From assembly GCF_001548095.1 (NCBI RefSeq), contig NZ_AP014815.1, positions 62,001-126,000 on the forward strand: a DNA stretch of 64,000 nt. Reading direction: 5' to 3'. Position numbers and translations under genes: made by a program. Shown one piece after another: positions 48,929 to 62,495 of the stretch. The notes beneath the pieces were generated by a model. The model was not told the DNA's origin and did not search any database. It was given only the letters and a program-made list of their open reading frames with translations. This stretch comes from Geminocystis sp. NIES-3708 (GTDB lineage: Bacteria > Cyanobacteriota > Cyanobacteriia > Cyanobacteriales > Cyanobacteriaceae). The first letter of the stretch is position 1, and each line of letters starts with the position of its first letter.

Positions 48929-51900
48929 TTACCAAGGATTACCAATCATCGTAAATGGTGCCCAATAAAAAGGATGAGAAAAATCTTCTTTTTGTCGAGA
49001 GTTTTCGGGCAACCCATCTAATGATACTTCTAGTTCAGGAGTAATAATCTCATTACCATCTTCAGTTTTATAAATTTTACCTTTAAGCATATTTAACTGT
49101 GCTTGTCGTAAAGATTCTGCTTTAGTTGATTGAGTTTTTAGTTGTCCATAAAAATCAGTCATTAATGCTAAAGTACCAGTATCACTGACTTGCCAAACAC
49201 TACCCATGGCTGTTTTTACTCCTGCTTTCACTGCTAAACCAGCAAATCCTAATTCTGCAATATTATTTCCAAAAGCGGTTTCACAGGCACTTAAAACCAT
49301 TAATTCCACTAAAGGGCTATTTAAACCTAAACTATTAATGTCATTTAATGGTAAACGAGAATTATATAGTTGAATAAAACTATTAGTAGTTTCATTGGCA
49401 TTAAATTCACCATGAGTGCCAAAATGCACGATCCCAAAAGGTTTACTAGCCAAATTTTGTTTAATTTCTTCTAAAGTAAAGTTATTATTCAAATATCTTT
49501 GATAATCTTCCGTTGCCTGTTCATTCCAAACTTTTTTAATAGTAGGCACTTCCACACTAACACCGGGCAAAGGATTAATTTGATTATCAGCAAATTGTGA
49601 TGCTCCCATAGCTAAAAGACTTAAATCCTTGATTGGACGATAACGATTATCATTCAGATTTAAACTTGGTGCTAAACCACTACTATATTTTTCCACTAAA
49701 AACTCTTGACTATTACCATCATATAAGGCGGCAACGGGAATAAAACGAATTTCCGAGGGCAAAATAAATAATAAATTACTGATTTTTTCTTCTTTTAATC
49801 TATCTTCAATAGGTGCAATTAACCAACTATATAACTCAGTAGCATAAGGTTTATAATCACCGTTTAAAGCAAAATTATCTGATGCTGTTGACCATAAATT
49901 AGTAGCAGACTCAACTATTTGTTGACGAGTAATTGGTACAACAATTCTGAGAGGCTGTCCTTTTTTTGTGACAATCAACAAATCTAGTTGATCTTCTTGA
50001 GATGGTTTAAGCTCAATACTAGGTTTAAGATTAGGTTTATTAATATTAATTTTTCTGTACTCCTGAGTATTTCCTATTTCTCGACGGGCAAATTCTTCTT
50101 CTAAATCAGAAGGTTGATACCCTTTAGGAGTAAAGTTAACATAAATAAATGCTGGTTTTTCCCCTGTTTCTTTTTCAATAGTAGTTAAAATTTCTTGTGC
50201 CTGATCTATGCGATAAATAGGTGTTGTTTCATTAGAATTATTTATACGAGAAGAAGAAATATCATCAGCTCGGATCACTGCATTATCGGGATTACTTACT
50301 AATAAACGTTTCTGAGAATCTGAATCAGATTGATTATTTGTTTCTTCTGGATTATTAGGCTCTACCGGTGGTTCTACCGGAGGCTCTACCGGTGGTTCTA
50401 CCGGAGGCTCTACCGGTGGTTCTACCGGTGGCTCTACCGGTGGTTCTACCGGAGGCTCTACCGGTGGTTCTACCGGAGGCTCTACCGGAGGCTCTACCGG
50501 TGGTTCTACCGGAGGCTCTACCGGAGGCTCTACCGGTGGTTCTACCGGAGGCTCTACCGGTGGTTCTACCGGTGGTTCTACCGGTGGTTCTACCGGTGGC
50601 TCTACCGGTGGTTCTACCGGTGGCTCTACAGGTGGTTCTACCGGTGGCTCTACCGGTGGTTCTACCGGTGGTTCTACCGGTGGCTCTACAGGTGGTTCTA
50701 CCGGTGGCTCTACAGGTGGTTCTACCGGTGGCTCTACAGGTGGTTCTACCGGAGGCTCTACCGGTGGTTCTACCGGTGGCTCTACCGGTGGTTCTACAGG
50801 TGGTTCTAGTAATTCAACACTAATATTTCCGACTTGAAATGCGTCAAAATATTGTCCTACTTGAATAGTGAATTCTCCATTAGTAATAAGTCCTTCAGTT
50901 CCACTGTTACTAGAATCTCCCACAATAAAAGGTAGGCGAGGATCTAGTTTGTTTGTATTGTCTACTCCTTCAGGAAACAAATTAATGTTAATAGAACCAC
51001 CACTAATACCACCGCTACTATCAATACTAAAATCACCATTTTCGATAGTATCAGTTATTTTTAGTGTACCTGCTGTTGTTATCTTAACACTGCCACCTGT
51101 TTGGTTACTGCTTCGAGTGTCAATGCTAGTGATTTCAATATCATTAGGAGTATTAACTAATACTGCACCACCATTACCATCAATTCCTGTTCCAGAAATT
51201 ATTCCCGTTTTAATCGTACTTGTTTCCGAAGTAAGGGTAATATTACCTCCACGATTACCAGAAGTTACGATATTTTCTGTTTGAATGTTATTGATAGCAC
51301 TAATCGTTATATCAAATCCATTACTTGTAATATTTTGACTGGAGAAATTATCAGAATCAAACATAGTTGGATTTTGAAGTACTAAATTGGTATTAAAAAT
51401 TTGACTACCAATAGTCTTAATTAATCCTCCATTAAAATTAGTGAGATTGGCGGTGATCGATAAATTATTGAGTGGTTCAATAAAACCAATAGCATTATTA
51501 AGAAAAATATTGCTATTACCAGCATCTAAAGTTAAATTCTTACTACCATTGATTGTCCCAGTAATAGTAATATCAGCACCCTGATTACTTAAATTTGTAG
51601 TAGAAAGGGTAACGTCATTGCCTAACAAAACACCATCATTAATCGTTATTTTATTGCCTTGAGTAAGAATGTCAGCGTTAAGGATTGTTGTTGCCCCAGC
51701 ACCAAAGATAGTTAGAGAAGCATCATCGTTGGCACTAATGCTATGATTAACAATAATATTTTTAGCCTGAAGAATTAAAGGATCATTAATTGTTGTGGGT
51801 TGATTAATTGAAATTACTCCCGATGTAGAATTTTGTCCCACAGTAATGCTTTTAAAGCCAGTAAAAATACTGAAAGCATTATTAATTCCAAAATTGTTAC

Positions 51901-54900
51901 TAGGTTTTTGCAAAAATAAATTACCACCGCTAGAAGTAACTAAGCTATTGGGAGAAAAGATAATATTTGTTAAGTAAAGGAGCGTTAAATCATTAAATCC
52001 TGTATTGAGATTACCTTGAAATATTATACTTCCTTGATTACTCGTTAAATTTGTATTTTTGAAAATTTCTAAATTATTATAAGTTTGATCTTTTGTGGTA
52101 GTAACGTTACCATTTAAGATGGTACTACCTAAACTGTTCATTATTAGACTATTAGCGTTAACCGTTTTAAGTGTTGTTACACCTTGACTATTAGCGGTAA
52201 TATCTCCTAAGGGTTGACTATTGCCAATAGCATCACCAAAGATAATATCGCCAATGCCACTATCGAGGCTGAAATTATATGTACCATTAACTGTACCTGT
52301 AATCTCTATATTTGCTCCTGAACTTCCTAAATCATTAGTGGCAAGACGGGCATTATTTCCTAAGATTACACTATCTCTGATGATAATTGGGCTATTTTGA
52401 GTGGTAATATCTGCGTTTAAGGTTGTGGTTGCACCTGAACCGATTATAGTTACAGGGGCATTACCTGTAGATAGAATATTTTTATCGATAAGAAGACTAC
52501 TAGCTTGAAGGGTTAAAGGATTTTTGATCGAAAGTGGTTCACTAACAGTAATTTTACCAACTTGAAAACTTTCTCCCACAATCATCGAGCTAAATTCATC
52601 CATCGAGCTTAAATTGAGGATAGTTAAATTATTTCCATTACCGATAGTTATTTCATCGTTACTATTGGCATTTTTAAGAGAAAGTACTTTACCACCATAA
52701 AAGCCATTTTCGTCAAAAACAATACTGTCAGTGGCGGTAATATTGATGTTGTTATCTATTTCTCCTAAAGAACTTAAAAAATCACCGATAGTAATAGACC
52801 CATTATTGGTACTAAGATTAATTGTTCCTGCTAAATTAGTAATTGAACCTGCATCAATTTTTGTAACTGTTATATCTCCTGCCCCAGTTGAAATAAAGAC
52901 ATTACCACCTTTACCTTTGGTTGGATCTTCCACTTGTAAGTTAATAGACTCAGCGAAGATAGTATCAAGAATGGAAATAGAACCTTGTTGACTCTTAATC
53001 GTAATATTTCCAGCATCCCCCACGATTCCATTTTCAGGTGCATAGGAAGAAGTATCGATCCCGTTGATGGTAATATCATTTAGAGCATTAACTTCAACAT
53101 CTCCAGCGTCACTTTTACCACTACTTGGATCAATGGTTTCTGTGGTAATAGAACCATCAGTGCTACTAACTATAATATTTCCACTTCCTAAACTACTATT
53201 GCCCTCTGAGGCAAGATTTCCCGTAACTATATTTCCTTTTGACTCAAGATTAATTGATCCTGCCGTGCCAACATTAGAATAGGATTCAATATTACCTGTT
53301 GAGATGACACCCTGTTGAGATGTTAATGTAACTGCACCTCCTGAAGATGAACCAAAAGTATTCAAATTCTTGGTCAAAATATCTCCTACGCTATCAATAG
53401 TAATAGTTTTACCTTCTCCATTACTTTCTGCTCGAATATTACTATCAATTTTGGTAATAGCTCCTGATTTTAATAGCAAATTACCACCAATGTTAATATC
53501 AATGGGATTAATATCTGAATCGAGATTTAAGAGACTCAAATTATTAATATCTGTGATACTGACATTCTTTGCACCTCCGATAGAGATAATATTTTGAAAA
53601 TCATTATTTTTGGTTAAAGTAATATCACCTTCAGGTGTAGCATCTAAAAATGTTGTACCTGTAACTGTAATAAGATCAGATTGGATAATACCGGGGAGTT
53701 GAGCCGCTTGAAAACTAATACTAGGTGCTGGAGTTGTGATACTTAAATTTCCTTGAAAAGAACCATTTAAAGTAATAGCATCTCCTCCTGTAAATGCTGG
53801 TGCATCAAACCCTAAACCTCCTCCTCCTGTTTCACTGATAACTGTTAAGTTGCCATCTATATCTAGATTATATTTAGCGTTTGTCAAAACCTCAGATACA
53901 TCAACAATTCCAATTTGAGTAATGATTAAATTCCCTAAACCATCATCGATGATACTGCCAGAATTAGTTTCAGCATTAATAATATTATCTGCATTTGTGA
54001 GTTTTTCGGCTGAAGGAGCTATGACTGTTTCTCCTGCAACTTGTACCTTCCCATTACCTGTTTGAATAACATTTCCTGTAGAATTTAAGGTGAATTTACC
54101 ACCAATTAAAACTTCATCTAAAACAGTGCCAGTTAAATTGTTATTAGTAAAATTAACATTGGTTCTACTACCTTCGGTTATAGTTAAATTGGTATTTCCA
54201 GCTACCTTTAAAAAAGATAAATTATCTTGACGAATGGGTGCATTGGCGGTAATGGTCAAATCATTGCCAGATTCAATATTTGTTCCCTCTCCAGAAATTG
54301 TAACTGCCGGATATTGATCTGGATTATTAGTATTGGTTGTACCACTAAAAATTAAATTACCATTAATTGTATCAGCATTAAAGATTGAGACAGATCCGCC
54401 GTAATCTGGATCCACAGTACTAGAGATATTAACGGCATCAAATTGTTCTGATTTACCGATAAAAGTAATTGAGCCTGTACCTTCAATGGTAACACCTTCA
54501 CCACTACGAGAGTTAGAGATATAAATACTTCCGCCATTACCGTTAATAGTAATGCCTTTACCAGAGTCACTTTGTCCTTCTAAAGTAATAGATTTTAATG
54601 TAGCAATTTCGGTATGACCTGAATCGAAGAATCCGTCACCAACATCAATAGGTTGAGATCGTATCGTAATACCATTACCATTTGTAGCTGTACCTTTTAA
54701 ACGAATTTCGCCATCATAGCCAAAAATACTACTATTAATAATCTTAAGACCATCAGACATTCCATCATTAACATTACTATTACTGATTCCATTCATTGTA
54801 ATAGTCCCAGTAGTATAAGTATTGATTAAGCTTCCGTTAATATTAATACCTGTTTTTCCTGTACCTGTTAGGGAAATTGCACCATCAGAAATTAATGAAC

Positions 54901-57508
54901 TGGAGAAAATACCAACAGCATTACTAAAAGAGGTTGGTATATCAAGAGTTTTTACTTCAAGATTAAGATTTCCTACATTGGACTCAATAGTGGAAGAATT
55001 AATAAATATACCTGTTGCACTACTACCAAAATCGATGTTCCCATCCAATACTATATCTATATTTCCATCACCTGAAAGAATTGATGAATCAGAAACACCT
55101 ATGCCAAAACGCAAATCTGTTGCGGATATGTTTATATTTCCATCACCTGAATCAATATTTGTGCTATTATTTATTCCAATAGAGTTGCTATTCACGGAGC
55201 CTACAGGTATATTAATATTTATCGCTCCGCCACCAGAAGCAATTTGGGAATTGTTAATTTCCATCCCTGTAGAATTTCCTTCACCGATTAGATTAATATC
55301 ACCGCCTCCTGACTGAATAACGGTACTTTGTGGGTTATTGAGAATCCGAATAGAATGGGGTGAGAATGGAGCGTCATTTTTACCTTTTAAAGTAATTGAA
55401 CCACCATTAGTAATTATGGAACTAGCTGTTGATATGGAATTACCAATCACTATACCATTATTGTTATTTCCTCCAGTTCCTCCTATCCCTTCGAAAAAAA
55501 TATTTCCCGTGTCAGATTGTATATTACCAGAATCAATTACAATGCCAACATTCTCTCCCATTTCACTGATAGGATTAGTGTTGCTTCCGCCAGTACCTTT
55601 TAGAGTAATAGTACCATTGCCACTGGTAGTGAGACTTCCTCTTGATAAAACAATACCACTATAACCACTAGCATTTCCCCCTCCTAAATATCCTTGTCCA
55701 ATGATATTAATATTTCCTCCACCAGCATCAATTTCACCACCAATAAAAACACCATTAGGATTAAAAATATTCGTGCCTACTGCGGCATCAAGAAGAGGAT
55801 TTGAACCACCGCCGAGAATTACATTTCCACCATTAGTAATAATAGATGAGCCGAATTCAATAATAATTCCTCCCGCTTGATTGTTATCTGCATCAGCGTG
55901 AAAGACGACATTGAGAGACTCTCCTGACAAAGGAGTTGAGGGTTGTATTTTGCCATTGAAATATATATCGTTAGCCGCTTTTAAGGTTAAAGTTTTTCCT
56001 GTAGCTCTATAAAATAAATTTGCGTCTGCATTCCATGTTATATTACCCTCTTCACTCCCAGAATCTCCTGTGTATATCTTGACGTCTCCATCGACTAAAG
56101 CATCTCTAATTATACCCACTGATAAACTAGCACCCGTATCATTAGGTGTAAAGACATTATTTATGTCTTCATTTATCTCATTAATCACTTCTCCCAATGA
56201 ATTATCGAGAATATTAATATTGTAAGGATCAATTAACCATTCTCCACCTGTGCCATTAGTTGCACCCACATCAGGCACTGTGTTGATCGAAAATGATTTT
56301 AAACCACTGGTTTCAATAAATCCACCATCCCCTGAAATCAAGCCACCTTTTGCCGTTAATTGACCATCAACTCCTAGATAATCACTGGCAAAGGCGATAA
56401 CCTCTCCCCCATTACCCCTTAAGTTGGCATCAGCATTCACAGTAGAATTTTTATCAATAACGGTAATTTGAGCATTGGGAATTGTGCCTTTTCCTTGACG
56501 CTCACCACCTAATAAAACTTTACCGCCCCCTAAATCACCACTCGCAGAGATTTCACCATCAATCACCCCAACTTTATCCCCTAATACCGTTACTTCTCCC
56601 CCTTTATTTGCCGATGAAGTACTAATTTTTCCTGATGCAATGACAATTCCCGTTTCATTAGGGATATTACTTTTAGCCACTTGTACTTGATTATTTTCAA
56701 CCATGACATTCCCCGTTGTCACACCACTATTATTTGCCCCTGTTAATAGAGTTGGTAAATCTTGAGGGGTGAAGCCTAATAAATTTCCTTGCTCATCTTT
56801 CGGGATATCAAGCTCTAAGCTCAATAAACTACCTTCAGGAGTTATTTTTACCCTTGATGTACCTTTAACCGCCTGTATGTTGATTTTCCCTTGGGCAGTT
56901 TCGATTGTACCTGTATTGATGATATTAGCCGCAAAAAGATTGATGTTATTTCCTTGTGCTACTTTTAAATCCCCCGCGTTGATAATACTTCCTGATTGTT
57001 GAGTGTTGAAAATAAAGTTAGTAGGATTACCCGTTAAATTTTGATAGTCATTATTGCCAATGGCGTTTAAAATTCCGTTACTAAAGCCAATACCTGTAGC
57101 GGTAGTAGCGGTAAAATCTGCTGGTACATTTAAACTAGCTCCTTGACCAAAAACAACTCCTGCAGGATTCATCAAAAAAAGGTTAGAGTTTCCACCGACA
57201 ACTTCGATTAAGCCGTTAATATAAGATGGATTTCCCCCTGTAACTCTGGTTAAAATATTTTGAATATTGGGATTTGTTAAAAAAGTTGCTATTTGTTGAT
57301 TCGTTAAACCAAATTCTTTGAAGCTGTGAAAGAGGTTTTTCCCGTCTCTGGATAATGTGTTGCCGTCAATTACGATGCGTTCTCCATTTTTGGTGACAAT
57401 GGTAGCTGTATTGCCATCGATACTAATTTCTTGACTGTTAGCGAATGAAGAATCTAAGAGTGTAAAAATTGATACAATTGCAACAATTAAACTAACTTTT
57501 TTAACCAT
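48929..57508 (-). CDS. Giant haemagglutinin-type secreted protein with C-terminal CHAT protease domain
   Basis: 2859 residues. Signal peptide (about 1-25), then a two-partner-secretion haemagglutination domain (about 30-150, with NLFLMNPAGVVFGQGASL), some 2000 residues of beta-helix-forming repeats rich in G, N, T, S and I, a stalk of about 37 Val-Glu-Pro-Pro units (about 2234-2384), and a caspase-like CHAT domain (about 2500-2859) with the catalytic dyad His2699 in FGTHGEF and Cys2742 in VLSACETAFG. This suggests an exported adhesin or display fibre carrying a protease. No TpsB transporter gene is in the window. Only 95 bp separate it from the downstream lipase gene. Confidence 0.88.
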   Translation of the reverse strand: MVKKVSLIVAIVSIFTLLDSSFANSQEISIDGNTATIVTKNGERIVIDGNTLSRDGKNLFHSFKEFGLTNQQIATFLTNPNIQNILTRVTGGNPSYINGLIEVVGGNSNLFLMNPAGVVFGQGASLNVPADFTATTATGIGFSNGILNAIGNNDYQNLTGNPTNFIFNTQQSGSIINAGDLKVAQGNNINLFAANIINTGTIETAQGKINIQAVKGTSRVKITPEGSLLSLELDIPKDEQGNLLGFTPQDLPTLLTGANNSGVTTGNVMVENNQVQVAKSNIPNETGIVIASGKISTSSANKGGEVTVLGDKVGVIDGEISASGDLGGGKVLLGGERQGKGTIPNAQITVIDKNSTVNADANLRGNGGEVIAFASDYLGVDGQLTAKGGLISGDGGFIETSGLKSFSINTVPDVGATNGTGGEWLIDPYNINILDNSLGEVINEINEDINNVFTPNDTGASLSVGIIRDALVDGDVKIYTGDSGSEEGNITWNADANLFYRATGKTLTLKAANDIYFNGKIQPSTPLSGESLNVVFHADADNNQAGGIIIEFGSSIITNGGNVILGGGSNPLLDAAVGTNIFNPNGVFIGGEIDAGGGNINIIGQGYLGGGNASGYSGIVLSRGSLTTSGNGTITLKGTGGSNTNPISEMGENVGIVIDSGNIQSDTGNIFFEGIGGTGGNNNNGIVIGNSISTASSIITNGGSITLKGKNDAPFSPHSIRILNNPQSTVIQSGGGDINLIGEGNSTGMEINNSQIASGGGAININIPVGSVNSNSIGINNSTNIDSGDGNINISATDLRFGIGVSDSSILSGDGNIDIVLDGNIDFGSSATGIFINSSTIESNVGNLNLEVKTLDIPTSFSNAVGIFSSSLISDGAISLTGTGKTGININGSLINTYTTGTITMNGISNSNVNDGMSDGLKIINSSIFGYDGEIRLKGTATNGNGITIRSQPIDVGDGFFDSGHTEIATLKSITLEGQSDSGKGITINGNGGSIYISNSRSGEGVTIEGTGSITFIGKSEQFDAVNISSTVDPDYGGSVSIFNADTINGNLIFSGTTNTNNPDQYPAVTISGEGTNIESGNDLTITANAPIRQDNLSFLKVAGNTNLTITEGSRTNVNFTNNNLTGTVLDEVLIGGKFTLNSTGNVIQTGNGKVQVAGETVIAPSAEKLTNADNIINAETNSGSIIDDGLGNLIITQIGIVDVSEVLTNAKYNLDIDGNLTVISETGGGGLGFDAPAFTGGDAITLNGSFQGNLSITTPAPSISFQAAQLPGIIQSDLITVTGTTFLDATPEGDITLTKNNDFQNIISIGGAKNVSITDINNLSLLNLDSDINPIDINIGGNLLLKSGAITKIDSNIRAESNGEGKTITIDSVGDILTKNLNTFGSSSGGAVTLTSQQGVISTGNIESYSNVGTAGSINLESKGNIVTGNLASEGNSSLGSGNIIVSSTDGSITTETIDPSSGKSDAGDVEVNALNDITINGIDTSSYAPENGIVGDAGNITIKSQQGSISILDTIFAESINLQVEDPTKGKGGNVFISTGAGDITVTKIDAGSITNLAGTINLSTNNGSITIGDFLSSLGEIDNNINITATDSIVFDENGFYGGKVLSLKNANSNDEITIGNGNNLTILNLSSMDEFSSMIVGESFQVGKITVSEPLSIKNPLTLQASSLLIDKNILSTGNAPVTIIGSGATTTLNADITTQNSPIIIRDSVILGNNARLATNDLGSSGANIEITGTVNGTYNFSLDSGIGDIIFGDAIGNSQPLGDITANSQGVTTLKTVNANSLIMNSLGSTILNGNVTTTKDQTYNNLEIFKNTNLTSNQGSIIFQGNLNTGFNDLTLLYLTNIIFSPNSLVTSSGGNLFLQKPSNNFGINNAFSIFTGFKSITVGQNSTSGVISINQPTTINDPLILQAKNIIVNHSISANDDASLTIFGAGATTILNADILTQGNKITINDGVLLGNDVTLSTTNLSNQGADITITGTINGSKNLTLDAGNSNIFLNNAIGFIEPLNNLSITANLTNFNGGLIKTIGSQIFNTNLVLQNPTMFDSDNFSSQNITSNGFDITISAINNIQTENIVTSGNRGGNITLTSETSTIKTGIISGTGIDGNGGAVLVNTPNDIEITSIDTRSSNQTGGSVKITTAGTLKITDTIENGDFSIDSSGGISGGSININLFPEGVDNTNKLDPRLPFIVGDSSNSGTEGLITNGEFTIQVGQYFDAFQVGNISVELLEPPVEPPVEPPVEPPVEPPVEPPVEPPVEPPVEPPVEPPVEPPVEPPVEPPVEPPVEPPVEPPVEPPVEPPVEPPVEPPVEPPVEPPVEPPVEPPVEPPVEPPVEPPVEPPVEPPVEPPVEPPVEPPVEPPVEPPVEPPVEPPVEPPVEPNNPEETNNQSDSDSQKRLLVSNPDNAVIRADDISSSRINNSNETTPIYRIDQAQEILTTIEKETGEKPAFIYVNFTPKGYQPSDLEEEFARREIGNTQEYRKININKPNLKPSIELKPSQEDQLDLLIVTKKGQPLRIVVPITRQQIVESATNLWSTASDNFALNGDYKPYATELYSWLIAPIEDRLKEEKISNLLFILPSEIRFIPVAALYDGNSQEFLVEKYSSGLAPSLNLNDNRYRPIKDLSLLAMGASQFADNQINPLPGVSVEVPTIKKVWNEQATEDYQRYLNNNFTLEEIKQNLASKPFGIVHFGTHGEFNANETTNSFIQLYNSRLPLNDINSLGLNSPLVELMVLSACETAFGNNIAELGFAGLAVKAGVKTAMGSVWQVSDTGTLALMTDFYGQLKTQSTKAESLRQAQLNMLKGKIYKTEDGNEIITPELEVSLDGLPENSRQKEDFSHPFYWAPFTMIGNPW
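50359..50808 (-). repeat. 12-bp minisatellite encoding (Val-Glu-Pro-Pro)n
   Basis: About 37.5 copies of a 12-bp unit, on the plus strand GGTGGTTCTACC with variants GGTGGC, GGAGGC and TCTACA. Variation is almost entirely at synonymous positions, so the peptide repeat is perfect. Plus-strand open frames across it are by-products of the 12-bp period. Confidence 0.95.
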
Positions 57509-58011: not shown

Positions 58012-58040
58012 TTGAAAATAAAACTAAGTTAAGTTATAAT
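58012..58040 (+). promoter_or_regulatory. Sigma70-type promoter of rplJL
   Basis: TTGAAA (58012-58017), 17-bp spacer, TATAAT (58035-58040). Predicted transcription start near 58047, just before the L10 leader. Confidence 0.75.
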
Positions 58041-58073
58041 GTTAAGCTTAAAGTCAAAATATATATTAAATTT

Positions 58074-58253
58074 GGCTGAAGCCGAAGACAGCAGGAGCGA
58101 ATAAATTAGCTTAATATACCTGCCTAGGTTGATGCAGATAATCAGTAAATGTGATTTTAGGAAATATTCTATTTTCTTTGATTACGGTTTATTATAAAAA
58201 ACTATCTCAACACATCAACCAAAAACCCGGCTAAGTATGGCTTGGGTTTTTTT
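58074..58253 (+). promoter_or_regulatory. Ribosomal protein L10 leader RNA
   Basis: GGCT-GA-AGCC (58074-58083) followed by GAAGACAGCAGG, with GCAGG (58091-58095) pairing CCTGC (58119-58123) and then CTAGG, matches the L10(L8)-leader pattern bound by L10-L12 to repress rplJL. It precedes rplJ and ends in an intrinsic terminator hairpin. Confidence 0.8.
58221..58253 (+). terminator. Attenuator hairpin in the rplJ leader
   Basis: AAAAACCC (58221-58228) pairs with GGGTTTTT (58244-58251) and ends in seven T residues, 80-90 nt before rplJ. Placed to cut transcription when the leader is bound by L10. Confidence 0.75.
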
Positions 58254-58324
58254 GTGTCCGTTGGTCGATAAATATTTTGGGTTTGACTAAAAATCAAATT
58301 TAAAAAACAACAAAATTCAACACC

Positions 58325-58335
58325 TAAGGAGGTGA
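58325..58335 (+). promoter_or_regulatory. Extended Shine-Dalgarno of rplJ
   Basis: TAAGGAGGTGA is an 11-base match to the 16S rRNA 3' end. The last G of AGGAGG is 8 nt from ATA at 58341, the ideal spacing; the GTG at 58332 lies inside the element itself. Confidence 0.85.
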
Positions 58336-58874
58336 GAACAATATCTAAATCCCTAGAGAGCAAAAAACAAGAAGTAGCTGAAATTAAACAACTACTTGAA
58401 CAATCTCAATTAGCATTCGTAGTTGATTATCAGGGGCTTAGTGTTGCTGACATTACCGATTTACGTAACCGTTTAAGAGAAAGTGGTAACGTCTGTAAGG
58501 TGACAAAAAACACCTTAATGAGTAAAGCGGTAGAAGGTAACGAAAAATGGGAAGCCATTAACCCTTATTTAAAAGGTACTTCGGCTTTTATCTTAGCTGA
58601 TGAAGAAAATATTGGTAATGCAGTTCGTGCTTATCAAGCATTTCAGAAAGAGCGTAAGAAAAGTGAATTACGAGGCGGTGTCATGGAAGGACAAGGTCTC
58701 AGTGAAACACAGGTGAAAGCCTTAGCCGACTTACCTACCAAAGATCAACTCATTGGTCAAATTGCTGGTTCAATCAATGCTATTACCGCAAAAGTTGCTC
58801 GTGGTATCAACGAAGTACCTACTTCTTTGGCTCGTGCTATCGATGCTGTCAAATCTCAAAAAGAAGCCGCTTAA
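58332..58874 (+). CDS. rplJ: Ribosomal protein L10
   Basis: Stalk-base protein of the 50S subunit; anchors L7/L12 dimers. SLESKKQEVAEIKQLLEQSQLAFVVDYQGLSV and the RNA-binding half are typical. 180 residues if read from the in-frame GTG (58332), but that codon is inside the Shine-Dalgarno. The ATA at 58341 (177 residues) sits 8 nt after AGGAGG and aligns with the start Met of the usual MGRTLE-like N-terminus; no ATG or TTG is available back to the in-frame stop at 58284. ATA initiation is therefore likely but unproven. Followed by rplL. Confidence 0.92.
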   Translation: MRTISKSLESKKQEVAEIKQLLEQSQLAFVVDYQGLSVADITDLRNRLRESGNVCKVTKNTLMSKAVEGNEKWEAINPYLKGTSAFILADEENIGNAVRAYQAFQKERKKSELRGGVMEGQGLSETQVKALADLPTKDQLIGQIAGSINAITAKVARGINEVPTSLARAIDAVKSQKEAA

Positions 58875-58931: not shown

Positions 58932-59312
58932 ATGTCTGATAAAGTAGCAAATATTGTTGAAGAGTTAAAAACTTTAAGTTTATTAGAAGCGTCCGAGTTA
59001 GTTAAACAAATTGAAGAAGTATTTGGTGTAAGTGCTGCTGCTCCTGTTGGTGGTGTTGTTGTAGCTGCGGCTGCTGCTCCTGCTGAAGAAGTTGAAGAAC
59101 AAACTGAATTTAACGTTATCTTAGAAAGTTTCGGCGAGAAGAAAATGGATGTTCTTAAAGTCGTTCGTACCATCACTGGTTTAGGCTTAAAAGAAACCAA
59201 AGAATTAGTCGAAGCTGCGCCTAAAGCTATTAAAGAAGGTGTCGGTAAAGAGGAAGCTGAAACCATTAAGAAACAGTTAGAAGAAGCTGGTGCTAAAGCT
59301 ACTGTTAAATAG
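58932..59312 (+). CDS. rplL: Ribosomal protein L7/L12
   Basis: Flexible stalk protein recruiting translation GTPases. N-terminal dimerisation helices, an Ala/Glu/Pro-rich hinge (about residues 35-56), and the C-terminal domain with [20 protein letters not shown]. 126 residues; ribosome site AAGGAG. 57 bp after rplJ; terminator follows at 59369. Confidence 0.97.
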
Positions 59313-59368: not shown

Positions 59369-59401
59369 GACAGGTTTTATTTTTATTACCTGTCTTTTTT
59401 T
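59369..59401 (+). terminator. Intrinsic terminator of rplJL
   Basis: GACAGGT (59369-59375) pairs with ACCTGTC (59388-59394), followed by seven T residues; the tail overlaps the stop region of the convergent restriction-methyltransferase gene. Confidence 0.85.
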
Positions 59402-62400
59402 ATTCAAAATTTGTGTTGTTCTTAGTTTTTTTGTATTTATTCGTCTGGTTAATAATTTTCATGGTCTCAATACTGACTGTAGTCACTCTCATTAATAACT
59501 CTATTACTTGCTCTTTATAATCAGCAAAGCGATAGTTATTGAACTTTTCAGCTATGGTTTTATCTTTAGGTTTTTTCTCTTTATATTGGTCTAAAATCCA
59601 TTCTAATGCACTACGATTACCTAGTTTATATTCCCATGCTTCTGAAGGTATTTTTTCTAAAGTTGTGACTTCATCAAGGATAATTTTATGGTTAGTTTTA
59701 TCGGCTTTTAGTTTAGGTTTAGGAGTAGCTTCTGGATTATTTAAGGGGATGTCTATTCTAGTTAATTTATAAGGTTTAATAGTTTCATAATTGAGGTGTA
59801 ATTCCATTAATTGTTTACCCCATTTACTCCATTGCCAAAAATCATCATAAAAGGGTATTCTCGGAAATTCTCTCTTTAAGTTTAGCTCATATTTTTGACG
59901 ATATTCTGGGTTATGTAAAACTCCATAAACATAGTTAAATATATCTTCTTTTTCTATCTTTTTATCTCCATAATTATCTCTAAATTGCTCTAATCCCCAA
60001 TCTGTTATATTATCAATTCTCTCTCCTTTTTCATATCGATATAATGGCAAACATTGGGTATCACCAACTAAATGAAAATCAGCTAAATTTATACAAGACA
60101 AAATTGAAAATTTTTTAGATAAGTTTGGATTAGAAATAATAATTAATAAATTATTTTTATTTAAGTCAATACCAAACATTTCATAGTGATTTGAAGTTAG
60201 TCTATCTGATAATAATTGCTCTGAATAATAATAATTTTTTATAAATGGACGATAATTATATTCAACTACTTTTTCATCATTAAAGTTGATTATACAGTTT
60301 CTTAATAAACTTTTCTTTAAATCAGCACTCCATTTTATTGGAGCATCCAAAATATCATCTATTTTTTTATTATCAAATTGATTAACTACTAAATTATATT
60401 TATCAATAAAATATTTAATTTTTTCCGATAAATTATTCACATTATAATCAAATACCCATTCATCTCTAGCTGTATTTACACCATTAGAAAATAACTTAAA
60501 TACAGCTTTTTCATCATCTTTATTTTTAGATAATTTAGTCTCTTTATTTACTAAAGGTAATAAAGTATTAAAATCATTATCATCTGCTAAATTTATCCAG
60601 TTATTATTTTTATCAGGATTAATAGTTTCAAAATTAATTGACTCTAAATTATTAGCACTTAAAAACTTTAATTTATCCTCTGCTTTTTTATAATCATCAA
60701 CAGCGTTATAATAAACTTTACAACCTTTTAATTTGCTATTTCTTACTAAAAAATAAACCGCAATTCCAACCTTTATTTGATCATCAAAAATATTTCCTCC
60801 CTCTTGTCGTCTTCTCTCTCCACTATTACGAGCATTTCCTTTTAAATCAATAATATAAATTTCGTTAAAATCTTCAACAATTAACTTACGAAATCCATCA
60901 TAAGTTTTAGCATCAATAAAAGATGAATTAGAAACAAAAGCGATAATACCATCATTATCTAATCTATCTGTACCCCACCGTAAAAAACGAGAATACATAT
61001 CATAAAGTTTAGTTTTTTGGGCTGTACTTTCTTTAACATAAGTCTCTTTTATTCGTTTATCAATTGCGTCATAACTGCGATTTTTATTATTATCATTTTC
61101 ATTTTGCTGATTAGCATTATAAGGTGGATTACCAATAATAACTGATATTTTGCTCTCATTTTGACGTTTAATTCTCTCAGTATTTTCCTGACTCATAGAG
61201 AATAAATCAAACTGTTTACCACCAAAATTAGTATGGTCTAAAGTATCAACTAAACAGATATTATTAAACTCTAAATATTCCCCTATTTTTTGTTGATAAG
61301 AATATTCAATATTCAGATTTGCTATATAATAAGGTAAGATAGAAATTTCGTTACAGTGAATCTCATTTTTATACTTATACTCCACATCTCTTGTTAATAA
61401 ATAATCTAATATTTCCGTAATAAAAGTACCTGTACCAGTACAAGGATCTAATATTTCTACTCCTTTATTTCCTAATGTTTTATTAAAGTGTTTTTCTAGT
61501 AAATAATCGGTACTTTGTACCATAAATTTTACTATCTCATTAGGGGTATAAACTATACCTAATCTGTCCGCTTCTTTCGGGTTATAGGCTTTATAAAAGT
61601 TTTCATAAACTACCTTTAAAAACTTCTGCTTTTCTTGATGATTAACTATATTAGAAGCCGTGCGAATAATAACATTATAATAACTTTGAATCGTCTTAAA
61701 AGTATTCCTTTTAACATTACCAGTAAAGAAAGTTTTGATGACTTCATTTAATTGTTTAGCAATATTATTTTCTTGGTGAAATTGAGCATCACTAAAAATA
61801 TTAGTGAAAATATCTTCTGTTAAAATATGCTGAATTATCATCTCCCTAATATCAGCTATTTTGATGTCTGGATTAATGGATTCTTGACATACTTTTAAGA
61901 ATTTATCCCTTGCCTCAATAAACGCCTTATTCCCTTCTCCTTGTGGGAGAGGAGTTAGGGGTGAGGGGGATTGACTATCAATTAAATTTCTGAGAGTATC
62001 TAAAATAGTGGGTAAATCTTGACTAAAAGTATTAATAGCTTGACGAAAATCTTTTATTTCTGTCCTTTCATAGTCTAAAAATTGATTAATTAACTTGTCT
62101 AAATCATCATCATTTTCCATATTAATCCGTAATGATTCATCCCCATTTTGGATTAATACGGCTGTTTTGGTATCCTCAAATAAAATATTATCCGTGGGGT
62201 ATCCTTTCTTAAATTTAGCCTCAATTTCAGCATCTAAACTATCCTTTTCGTCTTTGGCTTCCCAATATCCCCAGTCTAACCTCAAAGCATCTTTAACAAT
62301 ACCGTCAAGCCTAATATTATTTTTAAGAGGGCTGATAATGGTTAACTCCTCAACTAAAACAAAATTTCTCGGTTTACAATAACCATTTAATAAACTACCC

Positions 62401-62495
62401 ATTGCCCTTCTTACCGCCCCTTCATTACGACTACCACCGTAGCGAATAATTCTCTCTAATTCTTGACGATATTGCTTAATGAGGATACGAGACAT
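59400..62495 (-). CDS. Type IIG-like restriction-modification protein (N6-adenine methyltransferase)
   Basis: 1031 residues. N-terminus has a possible PD-(D/E)XK nuclease core (Asp64 in RLDGIVKD, then GYWEAKD with Glu79-x-Lys81). Methyltransferase domain: motif I LDPCTGTGTF at about residue 350 and motif IV NPPY at 456-459, typical of Eco57I-type gamma enzymes. The C-terminal third probably recognises the target. No separate specificity or helicase gene is seen. A dispersed repeat is inserted in frame in the linker (61930-61972). Codon use is strongly A/T-rich. Nuclease activity is inferred from motif only. Confidence 0.8.
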   Translation of the reverse strand: MSRILIKQYRQELERIIRYGGSRNEGAVRRAMGSLLNGYCKPRNFVLVEELTIISPLKNNIRLDGIVKDALRLDWGYWEAKDEKDSLDAEIEAKFKKGYPTDNILFEDTKTAVLIQNGDESLRINMENDDDLDKLINQFLDYERTEIKDFRQAINTFSQDLPTILDTLRNLIDSQSPSPLTPLPQGEGNKAFIEARDKFLKVCQESINPDIKIADIREMIIQHILTEDIFTNIFSDAQFHQENNIAKQLNEVIKTFFTGNVKRNTFKTIQSYYNVIIRTASNIVNHQEKQKFLKVVYENFYKAYNPKEADRLGIVYTPNEIVKFMVQSTDYLLEKHFNKTLGNKGVEILDPCTGTGTFITEILDYLLTRDVEYKYKNEIHCNEISILPYYIANLNIEYSYQQKIGEYLEFNNICLVDTLDHTNFGGKQFDLFSMSQENTERIKRQNESKISVIIGNPPYNANQQNENDNNKNRSYDAIDKRIKETYVKESTAQKTKLYDMYSRFLRWGTDRLDNDGIIAFVSNSSFIDAKTYDGFRKLIVEDFNEIYIIDLKGNARNSGERRRQEGGNIFDDQIKVGIAVYFLVRNSKLKGCKVYYNAVDDYKKAEDKLKFLSANNLESINFETINPDKNNNWINLADDNDFNTLLPLVNKETKLSKNKDDEKAVFKLFSNGVNTARDEWVFDYNVNNLSEKIKYFIDKYNLVVNQFDNKKIDDILDAPIKWSADLKKSLLRNCIINFNDEKVVEYNYRPFIKNYYYSEQLLSDRLTSNHYEMFGIDLNKNNLLIIISNPNLSKKFSILSCINLADFHLVGDTQCLPLYRYEKGERIDNITDWGLEQFRDNYGDKKIEKEDIFNYVYGVLHNPEYRQKYELNLKREFPRIPFYDDFWQWSKWGKQLMELHLNYETIKPYKLTRIDIPLNNPEATPKPKLKADKTNHKIILDEVTTLEKIPSEAWEYKLGNRSALEWILDQYKEKKPKDKTIAEKFNNYRFADYKEQVIELLMRVTTVSIETMKIINQTNKYKKTKNNTNFE
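61930..61972 (-). repeat. Dispersed repeat inserted in frame in the methyltransferase gene
   Basis: In the gene's sense it reads CCCCCTCACCCCTAACTCCT followed by CTCCCACAAGGAGAAGGG, encoding SPSPLTPLPQGEG. This is the well-known cyanobacterial CCCCTAACCCCTCTCCC-type repeat (recalled, not searched) and is far more GC-rich than its surroundings. Confidence 0.7.

What the first reader, a model, noticed from the sequence alone, without database searches (positions are those of the whole stretch)
58325..58345. rplJ probably starts at an AUA codon behind a perfect Shine-Dalgarno
TAAGGAGGTGA matches 11 bases of the 16S 3' end. The only orthodox start in frame, GTG 58332, is inside that element, while ATA 58341 sits 8 nt after AGGAGG and aligns with the Met of the common cyanobacterial MGRTLE-like N-terminus. 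AUA initiation is very rare and would be a further brake on an autoregulated operon; a mutated ATG compensated by a maximal Shine-Dalgarno is one reading.
Basis: partly seen in the sequence, partly recalled or inferred. Interest (0 to 1): 0.72.

Follow-up and report, generated by a model that had tools for sequence, protein, structure and literature searches.

The report
Ribosomal protein L10 starting at AUA
In one family of cyanobacteria the gene for the essential ribosomal protein L10 seems to begin with the very rare start codon AUA (or AUU) instead of AUG, behind a near-perfect ribosome-binding site, and the related genomes examined share this, so it is no sequencing error and may be a built-in brake.

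Summary
rplJ (L10) has ATA at 58341, where other cyanobacteria have their start codon, 8 nt behind AGGAGG within TAAGGAGGTGA. The only orthodox in-frame start nearby, GTG 58332, lies inside that Shine-Dalgarno (SD) element. It is not a sequencing error: 14 of the 15 family genomes held have an rplJ hit, and all 14 (4 genera) have ATA (12) or ATT (2) there, with GGAGGTGAG and the 8-nt spacing invariant. In 52 genomes of other families of the order and 20 named records, all 72 have ATG, GTG or TTG. The rival, initiation at GTG 58332 with ATA as internal Ile, is disfavoured: ATA is 4 of 171 other Ile codons in these genes; SD pairing is about -16 kcal/mol for the ATA site and near 0 for the GTG; codon 2 stays Ser/Pro, as after a start. 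The extended SD is common in other families too, so it probably permitted rather than compensated the loss of ATG. Most likely: near-cognate AUA/AUU initiation by the ordinary CAU initiator tRNA, a translational brake on an operon that also carries an L10 leader. AUA starts behind extended SDs are published for S. aureus, so this is a new member of a known kind. No protein evidence exists here.

The parts
58012..58040 (+). promoter-like site TTGAAA-17-TATAAT upstream of the leader
   Evidence: consensus scan, 11 of 12 matches; but 6 sites found in the region against 6.2 in shuffles: weak evidence
58064..58184 (+). L10 leader (RF00557), upstream of rplJL
   Evidence: Rfam 46.9 bits, gathering 44; matched in 14 of 14 family loci, 12 over the gathering score, 2 (L013, L014) just below
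58221..58251 (+). terminator-like hairpin whose 3' arm runs into U's, between leader and rplJ (putative attenuator)
   Evidence: fold of 58205-58262 -15.6 kcal/mol, z -2.67, 2 of 200 shuffles as good; not reported by the pattern scan
58325..58335 (+). extended Shine-Dalgarno TAAGGAGGTGA
   Evidence: complement of the genome's 16S 3' end; GGAGGTGAG invariant in 14 of 14
58332..58334 (+). GTG inside the SD: the only orthodox in-frame start near by, judged not to be the start
58341..58343 (+). ATA, inferred start codon of rplJ
   Evidence: ATA 12 / ATT 2 of 14 family genomes; ATG/GTG/TTG in 72 of 72 outgroup rows
58341..58874 (+). rplJ, ribosomal protein L10 (177 aa from ATA, stop included in the coordinates)
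   Evidence: NF000955 E 9.5e-49
58932..59312 (+). rplL, ribosomal protein L7/L12, ATG start with an AAAGGAG-type SD upstream
   Evidence: TIGR00855 E 3.4e-46; an ATG start candidate in 14 of 14 family loci; SD read

Best explanation
rplJ of this Geminocystis-like cyanobacterium, and of its family, starts at a near-cognate AUA (AUU in one genus) recognised by the ordinary fMet initiator tRNA (anticodon CAU). An invariant extended SD (GGAGGUGA, 8 nt upstream), older than the codon change, holds the 30S subunit over the codon and makes the poor codon usable. The weak codon lowers initiation on L10 while rplL downstream keeps its own SD and ATG, so it acts as a fixed, possibly IF3-sensitive brake on L10 in addition to L10-leader control. 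Shown here: the conservation, the SD, no UAU initiator tRNA found, the leader match. Inferred: that ribosomes initiate at the AUA, that the yield is reduced, and that selection keeps the codon weak.
For: (1) 14 of 14 family genomes with an rplJ hit have ATA (12) or ATT (2), none ATG/GTG/TTG; 52 other-family genomes have ATG 41, GTG 6, TTG 5 and 20 named records ATG 19, TTG 1. (2) GGAGG 8 nt before the ATA/ATT in 14 of 14; 43 of 52 outgroup loci have GGAGG 9-11 nt before their start. (3) Duplex energy with the 16S tail of the stretch -22 to -4 before the ATA/ATT is -15.4 to -17.2 kcal/mol, of the same stretch before the GTG -1.8 to +1.3, in 14 of 14. (4) At other Ile codons of these 14 genes ATA is used 4 of 171 times; at the start position 12 of 14. 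(5) Codon 2 is Ser (12) or Pro (2); outgroup codon 2 is Gly/Ala/Pro in 72 of 72: small residues that allow Met removal (rule recalled). (6) In genus g4 an in-frame TAG lies two codons before the GTG, so only GTG or ATA can start a full-length L10. (7) Precedent: S. aureus infC, ccpN and citZ AUA starts; ccpN, citZ and cvfC1 (AUU) gave about 10% of the AUG reporter yield in poor medium, ccpN up to 30% in rich medium (PMC13009471, passages).
Against: No peptide or ribosome-profiling data. GTG -9 is in frame in 14 of 14, although this follows from the fixed 8-nt spacing. ATA and ATT both encode Ile, so an internal Ile is not excluded by the codon change alone. Within a genus about half of the amino-acid-invariant codons are also nucleotide-invariant (63 of 127 in g1, 65 of 123 in g3), so within-genus constancy of ATA is weak by itself; the independent units are four genera. 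In the window's long ORFs ATA is 290 of 1577 Ile codons, much commoner than inside rplJ. Only 15 genomes of the family are held. infC in this family appears to start with GTG, so an AUN-start loop on IF3 is not seen.
Confidence: 0.86

Rival explanations
1. L10 starts at GTG 58332, giving MRTISKS..., three residues longer; ATA is an ordinary internal Ile. A small deletion between SD and ATG put the SD's GTG in frame, it took over, and the old ATG was free to change.
For: GTG in frame in 14 of 14; ATA and ATT are synonymous Ile codons; outgroup spacing is mostly 9-11 nt (43 of 52) against 8 here, which fits a small deletion.
Against: No SD at a usable distance from the GTG in 14 of 14: -1.8 to +1.3 kcal/mol for the stretch -22 to -4 (the GGAG directly touching the GTG was left out of that stretch, since it has no spacer). 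That GGAG is invariant, which this reading does not explain. ATA is 4 of 171 elsewhere in the genes. The would-be codon before Ile varies Thr/Ala/Val/Lys while Ile does not vary.
Confidence: 0.11
2. Sequencing or assembly error turned ATG into ATA.
For: None beyond the rarity of AUA starts.
Against: ATA or ATT in 14 of 14 family genomes, from single-contig assemblies (G004, G013) to MAGs.
Confidence: 0.01
3. A dedicated initiator tRNA (anticodon UAU) or A-to-I editing of the codon makes AUA an ordinary start.
For: Either would make AUA efficient; in vitro an initiator tRNA with UAU on AUA works well (PMC10158994, passages).
Against: 43 tRNA matches in the genome: three with CAU, of which one is initiator-like, none with UAU (150 of 355 first-look candidates were scored). 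Editing of A to I cannot explain the ATT genus.
Confidence: 0.02

Closest known systems
S. aureus infC, ccpN, citZ (AUA) and cvfC1 (AUU) starts (PMC13009471; passages read)
   Same: AUA/AUU start; an extended SD is stated for infC, cvfC1 and ccpN; ccpN's is conserved to B. subtilis and cvfC1's among staphylococci
   Different: There seen by start mapping, with reporters for ccpN, citZ and cvfC1 (none seen for infC); citZ's is stated only for strains of one lineage. Here an essential ribosomal protein gene, cyanobacteria, no experiment
E. coli infC and pcnB AUU starts (recalled; pcnB seen as a reference title)
   Same: Near-cognate AUN start keeps expression low
   Different: E. coli infC closes a loop on IF3 (recalled); in this family infC appears to start with GTG in 14 of 14 genomes with a match
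rplJ of other families of the order
   Same: Extended SD (GGAGGTGA in 42 of 52) and homologous L10 N-terminus; rplL follows in 31 of the 32 loci long enough to look at
   Different: Start is ATG 41, GTG 6, TTG 5 of 52
L10 leader RF00557 of rplJL
   Same: Leader match upstream
   Different: The start codon is a separate element, not part of the Rfam model match

Membership tests
AUN near-cognate start with extended SD (ccpN-type) | AUA/AUU/AUC at the homologous start position, no orthodox start at a usable place | tested here: met
   14 of 14. The only in-frame orthodox start present in all 14 is the GTG inside the SD; L003, L004, L008 and L009 also have unshared TTG/ATG codons 14-25 codons upstream
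AUN near-cognate start with extended SD (ccpN-type) | extended SD at proper spacing | tested here: met
   GGAGGTGAG, 8 nt, 14 of 14; -15.4 to -17.2 kcal/mol
AUN near-cognate start with extended SD (ccpN-type) | non-canonical codon conserved among relatives | tested here: met
   ATA 12, ATT 2 in four genera; tree clade 98/98
AUN near-cognate start with extended SD (ccpN-type) | ribosome initiates at the codon; reduced yield against AUG | not testable with these tools
   needs start mapping, N-terminal peptide or reporter
L10-leader-controlled rplJL operon | RF00557 element upstream of rplJ-rplL | tested here: met
   46.9 bits in the window; 14 of 14 family loci, 12 over gathering
L10-leader-controlled rplJL operon | L10(L12) binding represses expression | not testable with these tools
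   inferred from the family
IF3 autoregulation by an AUN start on infC | non-canonical AUN start on infC | tested here: not met
   the in-frame GTG is the likely infC start in 14 of 14 genomes with an infC match

The most novel reading that the evidence does not exclude
A whole cyanobacterial family has replaced the L10 start codon by AUA/AUU as a selected, IF3-sensitive governor that sets the L10:L12 ratio or ties stalk synthesis to initiation-factor supply: an AUN start fixed on an essential ribosomal-protein operon, for which my paper searches listed no earlier case.
Probability: 0.3. Interest if true: 0.75.

Novelty: new member of a known kind. Interest (0 to 1): 0.6.

Why it matters
Start codons outside ATG/GTG/TTG are mostly invisible to gene finders; here one sits on an essential, highly conserved gene and is shared by every family genome in which the gene was found, so a tool that allows only ATG/GTG/TTG would be expected to call a GTG start three residues too long (public annotations were not checked). 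It also gives a natural series (ATG, GTG, TTG, ATA, ATT behind much the same SD) in which the effect of start codon strength on ribosomal protein supply can be measured.

Tried and rejected
Sequencing error: rejected by 14 genomes. Special initiator tRNA: none with UAU among 43 tRNA matches (150 of 355 first-look candidates scored). Changed anti-SD: the tail pattern was found in 9 of 15 family genomes (21 places), and the 15 given as loci read ordinary GGATCACCTCCTT; the other 6 genomes gave no match, reason not checked. Second AUA gene in the genome: of 15 AAGGAGGT-N5-8-ATA sites rplJ alone heads a long frame without a near orthodox start; one other long frame (L171/L172, 161 aa) lies inside a longer ORF. 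ATT/ATC starts elsewhere in the genome were not sought. Same start context at rplJ outside the family: a class-wide pattern search of 388 genomes gave 44 matches in 40 genomes, against 24 for the reversed control by my count of the table; of the 30 given as loci, 7 (all family) lie at rplJ and 23 do not; 14 were not tested. The pattern would also miss other SDs. SD-sequestering hairpin CACC/GGUG and a 3-bp stem around the start (AGA/UCU to AGG/CCU in genus g4): 1 of 7 consensus pairs has a double change, covariation term -0.23, one pair broken in 2 of 14, and the window's own fold is not clearly better than shuffles (z -1.3); left as a hint. A paper on L12 stalk stoichiometry (10.1038/ncomms2373) and PMC5397182 are not held. 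Paper searches for an AUA start on L10/rplJ or in bacteria listed no L10 case in the library searched; one search listed 30 of 72 papers. Most listed papers were seen as listings only; passages were read in PMC13009471, PMC10158994, PMC11497404, PMC9094748 and PMC1242208.

Rows dropped or mended: named family records L031 and L032 are copies of L002 and L004 and are not counted; L053-L056 (four non-cyanobacterial records by title) were not read. One search read minus-strand loci in the wrong orientation, redone. One search dropped 7 of 14 infC loci by a stop filter, redone. The offset of L146 was set by hand to the ATG GGA seen before the count.

Full report
The sequence. The window is part of G000, contig C1; the best named matches are a Geminocystis sp. 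MAG and an unclassified cyanobacterial MAG, identical to loci of the same genus g1, so g1 is taken as Geminocystis or near it. rplJ and rplL lie at 58341-58874 and 58932-59312. TAAGGAGGTGA stands at 58325-58335 and ATA at 58341. The only ATG/GTG/TTG between the upstream in-frame stop and the ATA is GTG 58332, inside the SD; the next one downstream is codon 54. The two 16S copies of this genome that were read end ...GGATCACCTCCTTA..., the complement of all 11 letters.

Conservation inside the family. Of 15 family genomes held, 14 have an rplJ hit (the 15th, G005, is 67% complete). All 14 read ATA (12: genera g1, g3, g4) or ATT (2: genus g5) at this codon. GGAGGTGAG and the 8-nt spacing are invariant in 14 of 14. 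A tree of 46 L10 proteins, rooted at the midpoint, puts the 14 in one group (98/98), with the ATT pair beside the ATA rest (83/43, so the order of ATA and ATT is open).

Outside the family. In 52 genomes of 31 other families of the order the start is ATG 41, GTG 6, TTG 5; in 20 named records ATG 19, TTG 1. These are not all: the order search found a hit in 138 of 139 genomes, and what was read is the best-scoring loci plus one or more from each remaining family with a match. GGAGGTGA precedes the start in 42 of the 52 and 17 of the 20, so the extended SD is probably older than the loss of ATG. GTG/TTG starts are not rare on rplJ (11 of 52), while rplL has an ATG candidate in 34 of 34 outgroup loci where its motif was found (of 52 loci looked at: 32 of the order and 20 named) and in 14 of 14 family loci; in L007, L013 and L020 a TTG or GTG also lies just upstream.

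AUA or GTG. Four points favour AUA. The SD stretch pairs at -15.4 to -17.2 kcal/mol for the ATA/ATT site; for the GTG it is -1.8 to +1.3. ATA is 4 of 171 Ile codons elsewhere in these genes, though 290 of 1577 in the window's long ORFs. The codon just before varies Thr/Ala/Val/Lys, while this codon never leaves ATA/ATT. Codon 2 stays a small residue, Ser or Pro, as Gly/Ala/Pro does after the start in 72 of 72 outgroup rows. Against it: GTG is in frame in 14 of 14, ATT is synonymous with ATA, within-genus constancy is weak evidence, and no protein data exist.

Machinery. The 43 tRNA matches include three with anticodon CAU and none with UAU; one of the three is called the initiator by its GGG/CCC anticodon stem (recalled rule). 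infC has a match in 14 of 15 family genomes and appears to start with GTG in all 14. So AUA would be read as a near-cognate. IF3 disfavours weak third-position pairs (PMC10158994, abstract and passages; the value for AUA with CAU was not seen).

Regulation. An L10 leader lies at 58064-58184 and is matched in 14 of 14 family loci, 12 over the gathering score. A terminator-like hairpin at 58221-58251 follows. The AUA would add a translational brake. In S. aureus ccpN, citZ and cvfC1 reporters AUA/AUU gave about 10% of the AUG yield in poor medium, up to 30% for ccpN in rich medium (PMC13009471, passages). That the brake helps keep L10 below L12, which is needed in several copies per L10 (recalled), is inference.

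Verdict. Real, conserved, most likely an AUA/AUU start. It is a new member of a known kind, with an unusual host gene. Interest 0.6.

Noticed in passing
L057-L070 (infC loci): infC in this family appears to start with GTG in 14 of 14, in a conserved CCTGTGAC context; in the loci counted by eye the nearest GGAG is about 16 nt upstream, unusually far.
   Followed up: partly
window 58321-58334 and family loci: CACC a few bases before the SD can pair with its GGTG half (CACCT-AAGG-AGGTG in the window; all four pairs possible in 12 of 14): a possible SD-masking hairpin; statistical support is weak.
   Followed up: partly
alignment A1, genus g4 (L013, L014): AGA/TCT flanking the start codon change together to AGG/CCT, a single double change in a 3-bp stem with the AUA in its loop.
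   Followed up: partly
window 48929-57508, - strand: 2859-aa ORF with a long PVEPPVEP repeat; by eye it resembles a filamentous-haemagglutinin/CHAT-type protein (not searched).
   Followed up: no
window 59400-62495, - strand: 1031-aa ORF that by eye resembles a restriction enzyme with a DNA methylase motif (not searched).
   Followed up: no
L018, L022, L033, L121, L132-L136, L139, L148, L151: GTG or TTG starts recur on rplJ across the order, while rplL keeps an ATG candidate wherever it was found.
   Followed up: partly
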